Origin: Aliiroseovarius sp. Z3
Lineage (GTDB): Bacteria; Pseudomonadota; Alphaproteobacteria; Rhodobacterales; Rhodobacteraceae
Direction of reading: 5' to 3'
DNA: 64,000 bases
NCBI RefSeq assembly: GCF_029105185.1
Contig: NZ_JAFMZK010000009.1
Location: 1 to 64,000, forward strand
Shown here: positions 20,019 through 25,591 of the stretch, piece after piece
How positions within the stretch are numbered: the first letter of the stretch is position 1
Layout: the number at the start of each line of letters is the position of its first letter
The notes under the pieces: generated by a model
Database searches by the model: none
Told to the model about the DNA's origin: nothing
The model's input: the letters and a program-made list of their open reading frames with translations, nothing else
Made by a program: the position numbers and the translations under genes

Positions 20019-20624
20019 CTATTCGCCTGGACGGTTCAGGGTGAACTTGTCTTCCACCACCGTGTAGTCGCGATAACCAAGCCGCGCCAATGGGCGGGCA
20101 CGTGTGATGTCAAACATCCCGTCCACCATGCAGTCGTCGCGCAGATGAATACCCGTAACCTCGCCGAAACAGACGAGGTTTTCTTCACCCGGCAGGCGGG
20201 TGATCTGGGTCAGCTTGCATTCAAGTGCAGCGGGCGCTGCGGGCAGGCGCGAGGCGGCGATCGTCGTGCATTCGACCCGTTCCAGCCCCGTCAGCGAAAT
20301 CTCGTCTGTATCGCGTGGATAGCTGCCCGAGGAGGTGTTCATCGCGTCTGTCAGATTTGCGCCAACCATGTGGACGCAGAACACACCGGTCGCATTGATA
20401 TTGTCCAACGTATCCTTGCCCAGATCGCGGTCGCCCTTGCCCGAGGTCGACGCAAACATCACTTGTGGCGGGTCATACGCGACCCCGTTGAAAAAGGAAT
20501 AGGGTGCAAGGTTCTCGGACCCATCTGCCCCGCGCGTGGATATCCACGCGATGGGACGCGGGACAATCAACGCGTTGAATGGGTTATGGGGCAGCCCGTG
20601 CCCGTTTTTCGGTTCATAGAACAC
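20019..20624 (-). CDS. Flavin reductase family protein (FMN-binding split barrel)
   Basis: The 201-residue protein belongs to the flavin-reductase-like FMN-binding group: it starts MFYEPKNGHGLPHNPFNALIVPRPIAWIST and has ENLAPYSFFNGVAYDPPQVMFAS and NINATGVFCVHMV. Such proteins bind FMN as dimers and reduce free flavin or act as oxidoreductases of unknown substrate. It is divergent from the GNAT gene (71-nt gap) and has no monooxygenase partner nearby, so no pathway can be assigned. Confidence 0.9.
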   Translation of the reverse strand: MFYEPKNGHGLPHNPFNALIVPRPIAWISTRGADGSENLAPYSFFNGVAYDPPQVMFASTSGKGDRDLGKDTLDNINATGVFCVHMVGANLTDAMNTSSGSYPRDTDEISLTGLERVECTTIAASRLPAAPAALECKLTQITRLPGEENLVCFGEVTGIHLRDDCMVDGMFDITRARPLARLGYRDYTVVEDKFTLNRPGE

Positions 20625-20695
20625 CCGCTTCTCCCTTCCTTTTCCGCGTCATGCCGTGATAGCAGCAAAGGACGACAGAAGGCGAGGGGCAGCGG

Positions 20696-21214
20696 GTGTA
20701 CCACCTGACAGAAGAAACCGACGAAGACTGGTGGGACGTCGAAGCACTTTATGATCTGTGTTTCGCACCGGGGCGTGAGGCCTTGTCATCCTATCGCCTG
20801 CGGGACGGGGTCGCCCCCGTGGCGCGTCTGTCTTTGGTTGCGCGTGATGACGCGGGAATACTGGCAGGTGCGATCCGGTATTGGCCCGTCTCGATTGTTG
20901 GAGATCACGAAGCGCATGACGCATTGTTGCTTGGGCCGGTTGCGGTTCACCCCACCCGGCAGGGTGAAGGTTTGGGGGGGCACCTGATCCGGGAAAGCCT
21001 TTTGGTGGCACAGGATCTGGGGATGGAGCGGGTGATGCTGGTGGGGGACGCACCGTATTATTCCCGGTTCGGTTTCTCGAAGCTCAGGGATGTTGAGATG
21101 CCGCCCCCGACCAACCCGGATCGCGTTTTGGCCTATCGTTTACAGAATGGCACCTGGGACGGCGTCACCGGCAAGGTCATGCGGATCACATCCGCACCTG
21201 ACGGTCCCGCTTGA
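20696..21214 (+). CDS. GNAT N-acetyltransferase (YhbS-like)
   Basis: The 172-residue protein has a GNAT fold. The acetyl-CoA loop is HPTRQGEGLGGHLIRESL near 84-101, followed by VMLVGDAPYYSRFGFSKL, the ending typical of the YhbS-like subgroup. The start is GTG with GGCGAGGGG upstream. The substrate is unknown. Its 3' end overlaps the convergent small membrane protein gene by 29 nt. Confidence 0.88.
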   Translation: MYHLTEETDEDWWDVEALYDLCFAPGREALSSYRLRDGVAPVARLSLVARDDAGILAGAIRYWPVSIVGDHEAHDALLLGPVAVHPTRQGEGLGGHLIRESLLVAQDLGMERVMLVGDAPYYSRFGFSKLRDVEMPPPTNPDRVLAYRLQNGTWDGVTGKVMRITSAPDGPA

Positions 21215-21464
21215 CGGCAGCGAACAGATCGACCTGATGAGTGCCGCCGGACTGGCTGGCCATTCGGGTCAGCCGATCATGCCAGGTTTTGCGCGGCCAG
21301 ATGTTGCGCCGAACCGACGTGATGACCGCTGCGCCCAGCACGGCAAGGGCGCCGGACAGCGCATAGGACAAAAACGCCCAGACCGCCCCTATGTCAAAGC
21401 TGAGTGCGAGCGCCGCCGCCGCGGTTCCAGTGAATATTCCGGTGATGATAAGACTGATCGGCAT
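21186..21464 (-). CDS. Small two-helix membrane protein behind a LexA-type box
   Basis: I do not recognise this 92-residue protein. It has two hydrophobic segments, about residues 3-22 (ISLIITGIFTGTAAAALAL) and 28-47 (AVWAFLSYALSGALAVLGAA), followed by a basic tail (SVRRNIWPRKTWHDRLTR) that should face the cytoplasm. I chose ATG 21464 because AAGGAG stands seven bases before it; a longer frame from 21512 would run through the regulatory box. A perfect GTTC-N7-GTTC motif lies 18 nt upstream of the start, so the gene may be repressed by LexA and induced by DNA damage. The end overlaps the convergent GNAT gene. Confidence 0.75.
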   Translation of the reverse strand: MPISLIITGIFTGTAAAALALSFDIGAVWAFLSYALSGALAVLGAAVITSVRRNIWPRKTWHDRLTRMASQSGGTHQVDLFAAVKRDRQVRM

Positions 21465-21482
21465 GAGGGTTCTCCTTGTTCT

Positions 21483-21497
21483 GTTCCAGTTTTGTTC
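21483..21497 (-). promoter_or_regulatory. LexA-type SOS box, GTTC-N7-GTTC
   Basis: Two GTTC words stand exactly seven bases apart (21483-21486 and 21494-21497). This is the alphaproteobacterial LexA operator pattern GTTC-N7-GTTC, equal to GAAC-N7-GAAC on the other strand. It lies just upstream of the ribosome binding site of the 92-residue membrane protein gene. A third GTTC at 21478 and a GAAC at 21507 add near-copies. The match is exact, but binding is inferred. Confidence 0.6.
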
Positions 21498-21543
21498 CAA
21501 ACTGGTGAACAAAGTGATAACTGCCGAAAATTTTCATCAATCC

Positions 21544-23811
21544 TTAGACGGCGACTGAAGGTCGGGCCGGTTTCTTGCGCGTCAAATGTTCCAGCACTGC
21601 CGGGCGGACAGATTGTGCCCCGGACAGGCGTGCTTCGTCGATGACATCGCGAAGCTCAAGAAGATTTGTTCGCCGTATCAAATGCTTGACCGGTCCGATC
21701 GAAGCCGGGCGCATGGACAGGTGCCGCATACCCAAAGCAGCAAAACAGACTGCTTCAATGGGACGACCTGCGTCTTCTCCGCAAAAGCTGAGCGGTGTGC
21801 GGGCGGCGTCGCATCGGGTGACAATTTCTTCGATCAGGTTCAGAAAGGACACATTCAGGGTGTCATAACGGCGGCGCACACGCTCGTTCTCGCGGTCAGC
21901 CGCGAAAAAGAACTGCTTCAGATCATTGCCGCCAACCGAGATGAAATCGGCCATCTCAAAGAACTGCTGTGGGGCAAACACCATCGAGGGGGTTTCCAGC
22001 ATGGCGCCGATCTCGATTTTTTCGGGCAGGATGTGGCCAAGCGCGCGTTCACGTTCGATCTCGGCCAGCACCATTTCACGGGCGTCACGAAACTCGTCAG
22101 TCTGGGCAATGAACGGGAACATCACGCTAAGATTGCGACCGGCAGCAGCCCGGATCAGCGCCTGCAACTGCATCCGCATGACGCCGGGCTTGTCCAGCCC
22201 GACCCGGATGGCCCGCCAGCCAAGGGCGGGGTTAGGTTCGTCCAAGGGGTTCATGTAGGGCAGCACTTTGTCCGACCCGATGTCCAGCGTGCGAAACACC
22301 ACCCGTTTGCCCTTGGCGGCGTCCAGAACACGGGCATAGGTGGCGGCCAGATCACCGCGACGGGGCACGCGATCCACGGTCAGGAACTGAAGCTCGGTTC
22401 GGAACAGGCCCACGCCGGCAGCGCCAGAGTTTTCAAGCGAGGGCAGGTCGGCCATCAACCCTGCGTTCATATGCAGTTGCACCTCGGTGCCACACAGGCC
22501 CATGGCGGGTTTGTCCCGTAGGCTGCGATAACGTTCCTGTTGCGCCGCCTCCATCGCCATCTTGTCACGGAAGGCGGTCACCACGGTCTCTTCCGGGCGC
22601 AGGTGGACGATCCCGTTTTCCCCATCCACAAGGATATGATCGCCATTCAGGGCTTCGGTCGAGATACGGCCCGCCTGCACAATCAGCGGAATTGCGAGCG
22701 CGCGGGCAACGATGGCCGCGTGGCTGGCGATCGAACCTTCCTCAAGCACGATCCCGCGTAACCCGCGCCCATATTCCAGCAACTCGCCGGGGCCGATATT
22801 GGTGGCGATCAGGATCGGGTTCTCGGGCATTTCCGCGCCGGTTTCCTTGCCTTGGCCCGTCAGGATGCGCAGCAGCCGGTTGGACAGGTCGTCCAGATCA
22901 TGCAGGCGTTCGCGCAGATAGGCGTCTGGCACCTGGCTCATCCGGGCGCGGGCGGCGGATTGCTCTTTTTCGACGGCGGCTTCGGCGGACAGGCCGCGAT
23001 CAATGTCTTCTTCCATCCGGCGTTGCCAGCCCTTCGAGTTGGCAAACATCCGATAGGCCTCAAGGACCTGCATCTGGTCTTTGTCCTTGGTCAGCGTGTT
23101 GGCCAGAAGCTCATCGACCGACACCCGCAATTGCCCAATGCCGTCGTGCAGGCGCGCCTTTTCCGCGTCCGGGTCATCGGCGACAGGGTTGGTCACGACA
23201 ACGCGCGGGTCATGCAGCCAGACATGGCCTTCGGCAGCACCTTCTTGTCCGATGCCACCGGTGAAAGTGGTGGCGCGTTGGTGCAGGGCCCCCATCGCTT
23301 CGCCTTCGCCAACAAAGGCACCCAGCTCGGTCATTTCGGCCAGCACCATGGCGACAACTTCGAGCCCGTAAAGTTCGTCCGCCGAATACTCGCGTTCGTC
23401 CTTGGACTGAATGACCAGTACGCCAAGGTTTTCGCCCAGACGCTGGATCGGCACGCCCAGGAAGCTGGAATAAATCTCTTCCCCTGTTTCAGGCATGTAT
23501 CGGAACCCACGTTCGGACGGGGCGTTCTTGGTGTTGATCGGGCGACCGCGCCGGGCGACGCGACCGACAAGACCTTCACCAACGCGCAGGCGTGTCTGGT
23601 GAACCGCTTCGGCTTTCAAACCTTCGGTGGCGCAAAGCTCCAATGTTTCACTGTCCCGGAACAGATAGATCGAGCACACCTCGACCCCAAGGCTTTCGGC
23701 AATCAACGACGTGATTCTGTCCAGACGTTCCTGACCCTGCGAGGCAGAGGCAAGGGTCTCGCGCAGCTTAACCAGAAGCTTGCGACTGTCAGTTTGCTGG
23801 CTTTCTGCCAT
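21544..23811 (-). CDS. ptsP: Phosphoenolpyruvate-protein phosphotransferase PtsP (EI-Ntr)
   Basis: PtsP is enzyme I of the nitrogen phosphotransferase system and passes phosphate from PEP to NPr and EIIA-Ntr to regulate metabolism. The 755-residue protein has an N-terminal GAF domain (about 15-165), then the HPr-binding and swivelling domain with the active histidine H364 in GSIASHAAIVARA, and the PEP-binding TIM barrel with SVGGNDLKQ and SFCGEDAG. I chose ATG 23811 (MAESQQTDS). An in-frame start at 23907 adds 32 residues that look unlike the family. NPr and EIIA-Ntr genes are not in the window. Confidence 0.95.
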   Translation of the reverse strand: MAESQQTDSRKLLVKLRETLASASQGQERLDRITSLIAESLGVEVCSIYLFRDSETLELCATEGLKAEAVHQTRLRVGEGLVGRVARRGRPINTKNAPSERGFRYMPETGEEIYSSFLGVPIQRLGENLGVLVIQSKDEREYSADELYGLEVVAMVLAEMTELGAFVGEGEAMGALHQRATTFTGGIGQEGAAEGHVWLHDPRVVVTNPVADDPDAEKARLHDGIGQLRVSVDELLANTLTKDKDQMQVLEAYRMFANSKGWQRRMEEDIDRGLSAEAAVEKEQSAARARMSQVPDAYLRERLHDLDDLSNRLLRILTGQGKETGAEMPENPILIATNIGPGELLEYGRGLRGIVLEEGSIASHAAIVARALAIPLIVQAGRISTEALNGDHILVDGENGIVHLRPEETVVTAFRDKMAMEAAQQERYRSLRDKPAMGLCGTEVQLHMNAGLMADLPSLENSGAAGVGLFRTELQFLTVDRVPRRGDLAATYARVLDAAKGKRVVFRTLDIGSDKVLPYMNPLDEPNPALGWRAIRVGLDKPGVMRMQLQALIRAAAGRNLSVMFPFIAQTDEFRDAREMVLAEIERERALGHILPEKIEIGAMLETPSMVFAPQQFFEMADFISVGGNDLKQFFFAADRENERVRRRYDTLNVSFLNLIEEIVTRCDAARTPLSFCGEDAGRPIEAVCFAALGMRHLSMRPASIGPVKHLIRRTNLLELRDVIDEARLSGAQSVRPAVLEHLTRKKPARPSVAV

Positions 23812-24360
23812 TCTCACCGTTCCCTGTTCCTGTGGGCGCTTTCGGGCACCCGCAATTGGGCAACCCGTCCAACCACTTGGACGAACCCTACCGTAATGTC
23901 TGCGCATTACATTTTCCAGAAAGTCCTTGCGCTCTTTTCACCTAAATTCGCTCAGGTGGCGACATGTCGCGCAATTGTGCGCCATTTCAGCAATTTGCCA
24001 ATGGGTTTGGCAGTTTGCACCTGTCCGCAGGCTGGATGATCTTTGGGGCGAGTGGCCGATGTGCGGACGATAGCTCCCATTCGCTGTGCAAGCTGCCAAT
24101 GGCCGCTTTACTGTCCATCGTAGCTAAAGCCTAGTGTAGATATCGTGGCTCACGCGTCGGATTGAATTTTGGCCACCTACCGAACCTATCAAACTCCTCA
24201 CTGTATCAATGGAGAAGAAGGATATTGCTTAATGTATTTCTAATGGCAATGCTTGCATTAAGCATGGTTGCAGAAGCTCCCGACTGGGCGCTGGCGCTGG
24301 TCGTGGTTGAGCATCTTGGGAGAGATGCCAAGGCCGTGCGCTTGCCAATATTGAGTTAGG
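23812..24360. other. Intergenic region upstream of ptsP, turning AT-rich
   Basis: No supported gene is seen in this stretch. From 23812 to about 24120 it keeps the local composition and should hold the ptsP promoter. From about 24120 onward it becomes A/T-rich up to the orphan gene. A 65-codon open frame on the plus strand (24162-24359) has no ribosome binding site and no recognisable product. The compositional change suggests the left edge of a transferred segment, but I see no clear terminal repeats or target duplication. Confidence 0.5.
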
Positions 24361-25335
24361 GTGGCTCGTTTATTCATATTAAGAAAGGCCATAGTTTTGA
24401 GAATATTTTCAGAGAATATGATTATTGATGGGTCAAACGCTAACCCAATATTGCCAAAAGGAGACAATGTCTTTCGCCTTGGTACGCTCTACAAGCACTG
24501 CAAATCAATTCACCTACCTGCTCAAGATACTAGTATTCGAATTGGGACACTTTCGGAATATCGCATTAACGAAAATCGTGCGGTTCGTGATGAATACGAA
24601 GGTAAATTTCGGGTGAGCTTGAAGTTCAAAGATCGTATGGAGGTTTCCAAAACCTGGCTCAACAGATTGACTTTCGGAACAATACCGTTCGGGTCAAAAG
24701 TCTCCCAGAATATCGTGACTAAAGTAGTTTCTGGTACCAGAACCGTCGGGATGGTATCATCGACAGGGCAGTTTGAATTGCAAGATGTTTTCGAAGATCG
24801 CACTCAAATAGAGGGCTGCTTGGATATACTCTTTGAAGGCGCTGACGCTTGGGTATTAAGCTTTAGCCGATCGCAAGACAGTGTGATTAACGATTCCTCA
24901 TATGACTCATGTTGGTCACTTAAACCTGAAAATATGTCTTCGTTTCTACAAGCGATCACTCGAGAATTGTGGGGTGAGGTAGTGGGTGGTAACTACATTT
25001 CCGAGGATACAGTTGGACCTACAGGATTGCCAGGATTTGGCGTACCCAAGATGCGTGGGTTAAGATTGTCGATGTTTGATGACATTCAGGATGTAAAATA
25101 TAGTGACAAAATTATTCTGCCCCAATGCGAAGATGAAGATAGTATAAGAACGACGCATTTGGCTATCGATGAGTCAGCATTCACAAAACCTTTACACTTC
25201 AAAAACGAGGAAGAGACTCGCGTAATCATTCGGCCCTGCTATTCCGTTAACGTTTCCAGTCCTCGCTACTTACTGCCAAACTATCTGCGACCAGTGCTGA
25301 TACCTGCCAGATCGATCCTAGATTTGATAAGTTAG
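24361..25335 (+). CDS. Uncharacterised AT-rich orphan protein, possibly horizontally acquired
   Basis: This is an unrecognised protein of 324 residues (GTG 24361) or 305 residues (ATG 24418, equally possible; neither start has a strong ribosome binding site). Composition is unlike its neighbours: the first 60 bases hold only 19 G or C, and ATA, AGA and TTA codons are common. Visible motifs are RIGTLSEYR followed by DEYEGKF near residues 59-82 and FKNEEETRVIIRP near 280-292. This layout loosely recalls DUF2971-type proteins, some of which occur in accessory and defence regions. No signal peptide or membrane helix is evident. It stands alone between ptsP and lysC, both conserved genes. Confidence 0.75.
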   Translation: MARLFILRKAIVLRIFSENMIIDGSNANPILPKGDNVFRLGTLYKHCKSIHLPAQDTSIRIGTLSEYRINENRAVRDEYEGKFRVSLKFKDRMEVSKTWLNRLTFGTIPFGSKVSQNIVTKVVSGTRTVGMVSSTGQFELQDVFEDRTQIEGCLDILFEGADAWVLSFSRSQDSVINDSSYDSCWSLKPENMSSFLQAITRELWGEVVGGNYISEDTVGPTGLPGFGVPKMRGLRLSMFDDIQDVKYSDKIILPQCEDEDSIRTTHLAIDESAFTKPLHFKNEEETRVIIRPCYSVNVSSPRYLLPNYLRPVLIPARSILDLIS

Positions 25336-25591
25336 GGCAGCGTATATGGTTCGCTAGTTTGAGCGGGGGCTCTATTGAAGTATCAATTCAGACTTTGCCG
25401 ACATGCGCTGCATATCAGTAAGAGCGCGCTTTGGGCTCAATCCCGACCTTCGCGGCGCATCGCGCGAAGGACCGCTGACCGTTCGCCACAAACCCCGCAG
25501 CCCCTCCATCCTGAATAAAATGGAAAATGCTACCGAAAATGGAAGTTCTATGTGTCGCGGTTCCTTTGCCTGAACGGCAAACGGTTGCGGA
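25336..25591. other. Intergenic region between the orphan gene and lysC
   Basis: No gene is seen. A hairpin CCTTCGCG/CGCGAAGG lies at 25447-25470, and a 6-bp hairpin TTTGCC/GGCAAA lies at 25565-25581, close after the lysC stop. Neither has a T-tract. Base composition returns to the local average from about 25400, marking the probable right edge of the AT-rich insertion. Confidence 0.4.

What the first reader, a model, noticed from the sequence alone, without database searches (positions are those of the whole stretch)
21186..21500. Perfect SOS-type box before an unknown small membrane protein
Seen: GTTC-N7-GTTC stands 18 nt upstream of the start of a 92-residue protein with two membrane helices and a basic tail, behind an AAGGAG site. 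Known: this direct repeat is the LexA operator in alphaproteobacteria. Small SOS-controlled membrane proteins in other bacteria include toxins, cell-division inhibitors and holin-like proteins. Inference: this may be a damage-induced membrane effector. The surrounding genes are not SOS genes.
Basis: partly seen in the sequence, partly recalled or inferred. Interest (0 to 1): 0.6.

Follow-up and report, generated by a model that had tools for sequence, protein, structure and literature searches.

The report
DNA-damage-controlled small membrane protein family
A marine bacterium and most of its close relatives carry a small, unclassified membrane protein whose gene is marked with the switch used for DNA-damage genes, which makes it a good candidate for a protein that halts cell division or growth while DNA is repaired.

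Summary
In detail: GTTC-N7-GTTC at 21483-21497 stands 18 nt before a 92-aa, two-helix ORF (21464..21186, minus strand). Alone it is not significant: 2.4 are expected per window, and the genome has 133 against 125 for the reversed pattern. Comparison makes the case. In its genus (Aliiroseovarius by named matches), 17 of 21 genomes, its own included, have a homolog, and all 17 carry an exact box upstream, although spacer, flanks and distance to the start vary. The 17 loci hold one exact box elsewhere and no reversed control. The same box precedes recA in 21 of 21 and lexA, in tandem, in 21 of 21 genomes. The ORF is under purifying selection. The gene is lineage-restricted: four genus genomes that group together lack homolog and box, and none of the seven weak matches among 392 other-genus family genomes is boxed upstream. 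No known family matched. LexA control is very likely (about 0.9). Function is inferred: a damage-induced membrane effector, most likely a division or growth inhibitor that works like SidA. Holin-like, toxin or other roles remain possible.

The parts
21186..21464 (-). small membrane protein gene, 92 aa, two predicted membrane helices and a basic C-terminal tail; no known family
   Evidence: ORF and translation; hydropathy and dN/dS 0.06-0.22; no family at cut-off in Pfam, NCBIfam, PHROGs or PADLOC; homologs in 17 of 21 genus genomes, own included
21483..21497 (-). putative LexA operator, GAACAAAACTGGAAC on the gene's strand (GTTC-N7-GTTC on +)
   Evidence: exact motif before 17 of 17 genus homologs; same motif before recA 21/21 and lexA 21/21
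21472..21477 (-). ribosome-binding site AAGGAG, 7 nt before the ATG
   Evidence: sequence
21544..23907 (-). ptsP (GAF domain plus PTS enzyme I), the gene upstream on the same strand, ending 79 nt before the small gene's ATG; context, not part of the claim
   Evidence: in the five other gene-carrying genus genomes searched with ptsP the box lies 53-66 nt behind ptsP
20696..21214 (+). GNAT acetyltransferase gene, convergent, overlapping the small gene's 3' end by 29 bp; context

Best explanation
This is a LexA-repressed, DNA-damage-induced gene. LexA bound at 21483-21497, just before the ribosome site, keeps it off. When RecA on single-stranded DNA triggers LexA cleavage, a small N-in/C-in hairpin protein is made and inserts in the inner membrane, with its conserved basic tail (W61, R64, L65, M68, Q71, F81 invariant) in the cytoplasm. 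The most likely job is to pause division or growth by binding a membrane-embedded division or envelope component until repair is done: it would work like SidA of Caulobacter without evidence of being its homolog. Shown here: the gene, its selection, the conserved box, and an SOS system using the same box. Inferred: LexA binding, induction, topology, target and effect.
For: Exact box before 17 of 17 genus homologs, though the upstream 45 nt are only 37% identical between the two main groups (8 against 8 sequences) and the gap to the ATG ranges from 18 to 124 nt. Box orientation (GAACA or GAACG toward the gene) is the same as in recA 21/21 and lexA 21/21. The motif also lies in apparently intergenic positions next to uvrA, a pcrA/uvrD-type gene and mmcB in the same genome. 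Purifying selection: dN/dS 0.06-0.22 in all 31 pairs computed, from 12 of the 17 homologs (range rechecked). Seventeen residues invariant in the 13 homologs aligned. Two hydrophobic peaks in 17 of 17 homologs with a 17-residue window at 1.5, in 14 of 17 with 19 residues at 1.6. Among 35 other exact-box contexts in this genome no other small membrane ORF with a ribosome site was found by the criteria. Small LexA-controlled membrane division inhibitors exist: SidA, 29 aa, acts on FtsW (passages of PMC4211646; LexA control in passages of PMC12700426); YneA of Bacillus binds FtsW (search listing).
Against: No binding, induction or phenotype data. SidA is 29 aa and, as recalled, single-pass; this protein has two helices and a long tail. 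Four genomes of the genus lack it, and two of those showed no other exact-box small membrane ORF in 60 of 62 contexts, so the function is not indispensable. The exact motif is only mildly above control genome-wide (39 against 26 for GAACA-N6-GAAC), and many exact matches lie inside genes. No sigma-70-type promoter was found by pattern. AlphaFold confidence is low (pLDDT 60, pTM 0.27), with no fold match (best E 2.8).
Confidence: 0.42

Rival explanations
1. LexA-controlled, but a membrane-permeabilising (holin- or toxin-like) protein that depolarises or kills heavily damaged cells, for example to release gene transfer agents or bring on dormancy.
For: Two helices, short loop and basic C-terminal tail resemble class II holins (topology recalled). 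A sub-threshold Pfam LydA-holin match was seen (E 0.24, 12 bits against a cut-off of 28.4). The SOS peptide DinQ is toxic (search listing).
Against: The holin match appears in 1 of 13 homologs. Nothing relevant in PHROGs (5 matches, best E 0.075, one member each), in viral contigs (51 pattern hits, none a relative), or in phage or plasmid records with the single protein. No lysis gene recognised beside it. A conserved cytoplasmic tail suggests a protein partner rather than a pore (inference).
Confidence: 0.2
2. LexA-controlled, but an accessory membrane protein unrelated to division: for example an adaptor for PtsP/nitrogen-PTS signalling or an envelope-stress protein made after damage.
For: Position behind ptsP. 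Small two-helix ORFs without a box sit behind ptsP in two other genera (L029; L101), so the membrane protein may be older than its LexA control.
Against: A two-helix ORF behind ptsP is rare: 1 of 89 other-genus loci, plus L029 from another search. The homology of those two is weak (profile E 2e-7 and 7e-4).
Confidence: 0.2
3. The motif is a chance match, or part of another operator such as the palindrome CCAGTTT-N6-AAACTGG that overlaps it, and LexA does not control the gene.
For: The bare motif is at chance frequency in the window and genome. A perfect 7-bp palindrome overlaps it in the window. At least one exact match elsewhere, recurring in relatives, turned out to be coding sequence (L148).
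Against: The palindrome is complete in only 5 of 17 homologs, while the box is exact in 17 of 17. The box before the small gene is outside its reading frame and ptsP's. Only one exact box lies elsewhere in the 17 loci (53,469 bases), and none of the reversed control.
Confidence: 0.08
4. The ORF is not a real protein gene; the box regulates a small RNA or nothing.
For: No database family; overlapping long ORFs on the other strand.
Against: dN/dS is 0.06-0.22 in 31 pairs, the reading frame is kept in 17 genomes, and there is no Rfam match at 20600-22200.
Confidence: 0.03

Closest known systems
SidA (Caulobacter SOS-induced division inhibitor)
   Same: Alphaproteobacterial, small inner-membrane protein in a LexA regulon whose consensus box is GTTC-N7-GTTC (passages of PMC4211646 and PMC12700426)
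   Different: SidA is 29 aa; this is 92-123 aa with two predicted helices and a conserved tail. Judged from size and layout only; no alignment was made
DidA (Caulobacter, damage-induced, SOS-independent)
   Same: Small transmembrane protein induced by DNA damage
   Different: DidA is driven by DriD, not LexA; here a LexA-type box is present
YneA (Bacillus) and SosA (Staphylococcus)
   Same: SOS-induced division inhibitors (titles and abstract starts only)
   Different: Other phylum; single-helix layout is recalled; similarity not tested
Class II holins (S21-type)
   Same: Two membrane segments and a charged C-terminal tail (recalled)
   Different: No phage context and no profile match at cut-off
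TisB / DinQ SOS membrane peptides
   Same: SOS-controlled small membrane proteins (DinQ from a listing; TisB recalled)
   Different: Those are short single-helix peptides with antisense RNAs; here two helices and a long conserved tail

Membership tests
LexA/SOS regulon (alphaproteobacterial type) | GTTC-N7-GTTC direct repeat close upstream of the start | tested here: met
   Window 21483-21497, 18 nt from the ATG
LexA/SOS regulon (alphaproteobacterial type) | Box conserved before orthologs | tested here: met
   17 of 17 homologs in the genus. Not found upstream of the weak matches in other genera, whose orthology is uncertain
LexA/SOS regulon (alphaproteobacterial type) | The organism has LexA, with lexA and recA carrying this box | tested here: met
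   lexA 21/21 with tandem boxes, recA 21/21
LexA/SOS regulon (alphaproteobacterial type) | LexA binding and RecA-dependent induction by DNA damage | not testable with these tools
   needs gel shift/ChIP and transcript data
SidA family | About 29 aa, inner membrane | tested here: not met
   92-123 aa, two helices; SidA size from PMC4211646 passages
SidA family | Sequence similarity to SidA | not tested
   no SidA sequence was fetched
SidA family | Inhibits division through FtsW/FtsN | not testable with these tools
   needs overexpression and two-hybrid tests
Class II holins | Two membrane helices, N-in/C-in, charged tail | tested here: inconclusive
   Two hydrophobic peaks in 17 of 17 (window 17, threshold 1.5) or 14 of 17 (window 19, 1.6) homologs; basic tail in the 7 listed; orientation not testable
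Class II holins | Match to a holin profile, phage or lysis-cassette context | tested here: not met
Type I toxin (TisB/DinQ type) | Antisense RNA partner | tested here: inconclusive
   No Rfam match at 20600-22200, but an undescribed antisense RNA would not be found

The most novel reading that the evidence does not exclude
A pre-existing small two-helix membrane protein behind ptsP was captured into the SOS regulon within one Roseobacter genus by gaining a LexA box. It is now the lineage's own damage checkpoint protein, a new two-helix type of SOS division inhibitor, filling the place that SidA, SulA or YneA hold elsewhere.
Probability: 0.25. Interest if true: 0.7.

Novelty: new member of a known kind. 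Interest (0 to 1): 0.5.

Why it matters
SOS division inhibitors differ between lineages, and four paper searches here (judged from titles and abstract starts, open-access library only) showed none described for Rhodobacterales. This family gives a concrete, boxed, selected candidate found in most of one genus, with four relatives lacking it as a natural contrast. It may also show how a small membrane protein enters the SOS regulon in recent evolution.

Tried and rejected
Single-site statistics: not significant, so conservation was used instead. Palindrome operator: complete in 5 of 17 only. Phage/holin origin: no support. Defence system: no PADLOC match. Known RNA: none in Rfam. Promoter and terminator scan of 21100-21700: none found, so the promoter position is unknown. 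Structure: low-confidence model, best PDB match E 2.8. A PWM from 31 distinct boxes ranked the site 5th of 38, but sites inside genes also score high, and one training box (before the ImuB-like gene) proved on recheck to lie inside the preceding gene's open frame, so the PWM is not used as evidence and the ImuB-like gene is not counted as boxed. The 119-124 nt leader between box and ATG in 7 of 17 homologs: weak consensus fold, covariation term +0.96, so a structured leader is not claimed. The tree rests on recA alone for 8 of 21 genomes because my motif missed their lexA ORFs; it is used only for the grouping of the four genomes lacking the gene (support 0.965) and gives no firm root, so gain or loss of the gene is not decided. 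In the first script reading frames were taken on one strand only; one search corrected this. The first ORF scan behind ptsP asked for ATG and missed L101's GTG start; one search allowed other starts. Gene starts in the exact-box contexts are first-Met guesses.

Rows dropped: alignment A1 used 13 of 17 genus proteins (L005, L014, L018, L019 left out as close to others). dN/dS used 12 of 17. Behind ptsP: 29 + 60 = 89 of the 145 other-genus genomes with a match were examined, two of them on short contig ends (L091, L187). Exact-box contexts: 35 of 39 G000 sites beside recA, lexA (two) and the gene itself; 60 of 62 sites outside recA and lexA in G200 and G203. Of the seven other-genus matches, L034 is a much longer transporter-like ORF (by eye) and not counted as a homolog; L002 has no box.

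Full report
What is there. On the minus strand, a 92-aa ORF (ATG at 21464, stop ending at 21186) starts 79 nt behind ptsP (21544..23907) and converges with a GNAT acetyltransferase gene (20696..21214). An AAGGAG site lies 7 nt before the ATG, and the direct repeat GTTCCAGTTTTGTTC (21483-21497) ends 18 nt before it. The protein has two hydrophobic segments (about 3-21 and 30-48) followed by a basic tail.

Is the box more than chance? Alone, no. The shuffled expectation is 2.36 per window, and the genome holds 133 exact matches against 125 for the reversed pattern. The narrower form GAACA-N6-GAAC is mildly enriched: 39 against 26 in the window's genome, 30 against 21 and 45 against 22 in two relatives, 31 against 22 and 37 against 21 in two more.

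Conservation. In the genus, 17 of 21 genomes, the window's own included, have a homolog. All 17 homologs have an exact box upstream of the start. Eight distinct box sequences occur. Ten of 15 box columns are invariant, including all eight GAAC letters, against 6 of 75 flanking columns (Fisher p about 3e-6, not corrected for relatedness). Between the two main groups (8 and 8 sequences) the box letters are 100% identical, the spacer 47% and the upstream 45 nt 37%. The gap from box to ATG is 18-20 nt in ten homologs and 119-124 nt in seven. The 17 loci (53,469 bases) contain one further exact box and no reversed control. An overlapping palindrome in the window is complete in only 5 of 17.

The SOS system is there and uses this box. 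lexA (21 of 21, tandem boxes) and recA (21 of 21) carry it in the same orientation. In the window's genome, exact boxes also lie in apparently intergenic positions 41 nt before a pcrA/uvrD-type helicase gene and, on the opposite side of the box, 67 nt before uvrA and 11 nt before mmcB (families). A further site near an ImuB-like gene lies inside the open frame that precedes it and is not counted. Many of the 39 exact sites lie within long open frames. Caulobacter's published consensus is the same (passages of PMC12700426). Predicted LexA sites in Dinoroseobacter shibae were reported for lexA, recA, dprA and others; the passages I saw name no small membrane protein (PMC6473078; its supplements were not available).

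The protein. NG86 dN/dS is 0.06-0.22 in all 31 pairs computed among 12 of the 17 homologs (range rechecked), so it is a real gene under purifying selection. It evolves fast: identity to the window protein falls to 35% within the genus, while the ptsP C-terminus stays at 81-91% in the nine genus genomes tested. Seventeen residues are invariant among the 13 aligned homologs, including T8, G9, T12 and G13 in the first helix and W61, R64, L65, M68, Q71 and F81 in the tail. Two hydrophobic peaks are seen in 17 of 17 homologs with a 17-residue window at 1.5 and in 14 of 17 with 19 residues at 1.6. AlphaFold gave helices 3-22, 27-55, 58-72 and 78-89 at low confidence and no fold match. No Pfam, NCBIfam, PHROG or PADLOC family matched at a meaningful level.

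Distribution. A single-sequence search of 198 family genomes found the window's own gene and one weak match (G092). A profile search of 394 family genomes (392 outside the genus) found seven other-genus matches at E up to about 0.001. None has an exact box upstream; one locus (L032) has one 910 nt beyond the start, and one match is a transporter-like ORF. One match (L029) lies directly behind ptsP. Among 89 other-genus ptsP loci examined of 145, one (L101) has a two-helix ORF behind ptsP, without a box. No exact box lies within 600 nt behind ptsP in the 60 loci or within 900 nt in the 29, save one at +649 in L098; two of the 89 loci were short. The four genus genomes lacking the gene group together in a recA/lexA tree and have no exact box in the 1,400 nt behind ptsP. 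Three of them (G198, G200, G206) have there a different ORF with a ribosome site and one hydrophobic stretch at its start; the fourth (G203) has a frame with one hydrophobic stretch and no clear ribosome site. In two of these four, 60 of 62 further exact-box contexts showed no other small membrane ORF with a ribosome site, nor did 35 other contexts in the window's genome. So the boxed gene is a lineage-specific candidate member of the SOS regulon, and the only small membrane candidate found by these criteria; boxes that depart from the exact consensus were not scanned.

How it works. LexA control is very likely (about 0.9). Function is inference. Several small, lineage-specific, SOS-controlled membrane proteins are division inhibitors, and the nearest by phylogeny is SidA, 29 aa, acting on FtsW (PMC4211646 passages); others are toxic membrane peptides such as DinQ (listing). 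A conserved cytoplasmic tail with invariant aromatic and basic positions suggests a protein partner rather than a simple pore. I therefore favour a division- or growth-pausing effector (0.42), ahead of a holin/toxin-like role (0.2) and a role unrelated to division (0.2).

Literature. Paper searches for an SOS division inhibitor or small LexA-controlled membrane protein in Rhodobacterales or alphaproteobacteria returned one, one, two and no papers, none on point by title and abstract start and none opened (open-access library only). Statements on TisB, SulA and holin topology are recalled.

Noticed in passing
L147 (G000:C9:145016-147030; box at C9:146016-146030): An exact LexA-type box (GAACATATATAGAAC) lies 23 nt before a gene, with a ribosome site, matching the DS32_1 anti-phage phosphoribosyltransferase-like family (NF053875, 348 bits against a cut-off of 250): a defence gene possibly under SOS control. 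Conservation of the box was not tested.
   Followed up: partly
L141 (G000:C6:105945-107959; box at C6:106945-106959): The box GAACAAATATAGAAC lies 44 nt before a 100-aa ORF on the opposite side with a ribosome site and no Pfam or NCBIfam match; the same 15-mer occurs in G207:C4:2169, context there not examined.
   Followed up: partly
L148 (G000:C11:89887-91901) and L117 (G000:C1:8237-10251): The 15-mer GAACAAATCAGGAAC occurs at both places and in G207, G216 and G200. In L148 it lies inside the 3' part of an open frame just before an ImuB-like gene, so there it may be coding sequence that looks like a LexA box; in L117 it lies 153 nt before a corrinoid protein gene.
   Followed up: partly
window 24000-25500: Low-GC stretch (0.43-0.48, against 0.55-0.64 on either side) with a 324-aa ORF (24361..25335 +) without Pfam or PADLOC match and only a sub-threshold NCBIfam one: probably acquired DNA between ptsP and an aspartate-kinase-like gene (the latter named by eye).
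   Followed up: partly
L011-L014, L017-L019, upstream of the homologs: Seven homologs have 119-124 nt between the LexA box and the ATG where the other ten have 18-20; weak consensus fold, origin unknown.
   Followed up: partly
L113, L115, L116, behind ptsP: In three genus genomes lacking the boxed gene, a different ORF with a ribosome site, a hydrophobic start and many basic residues sits at the same place, without a LexA box.
   Followed up: partly
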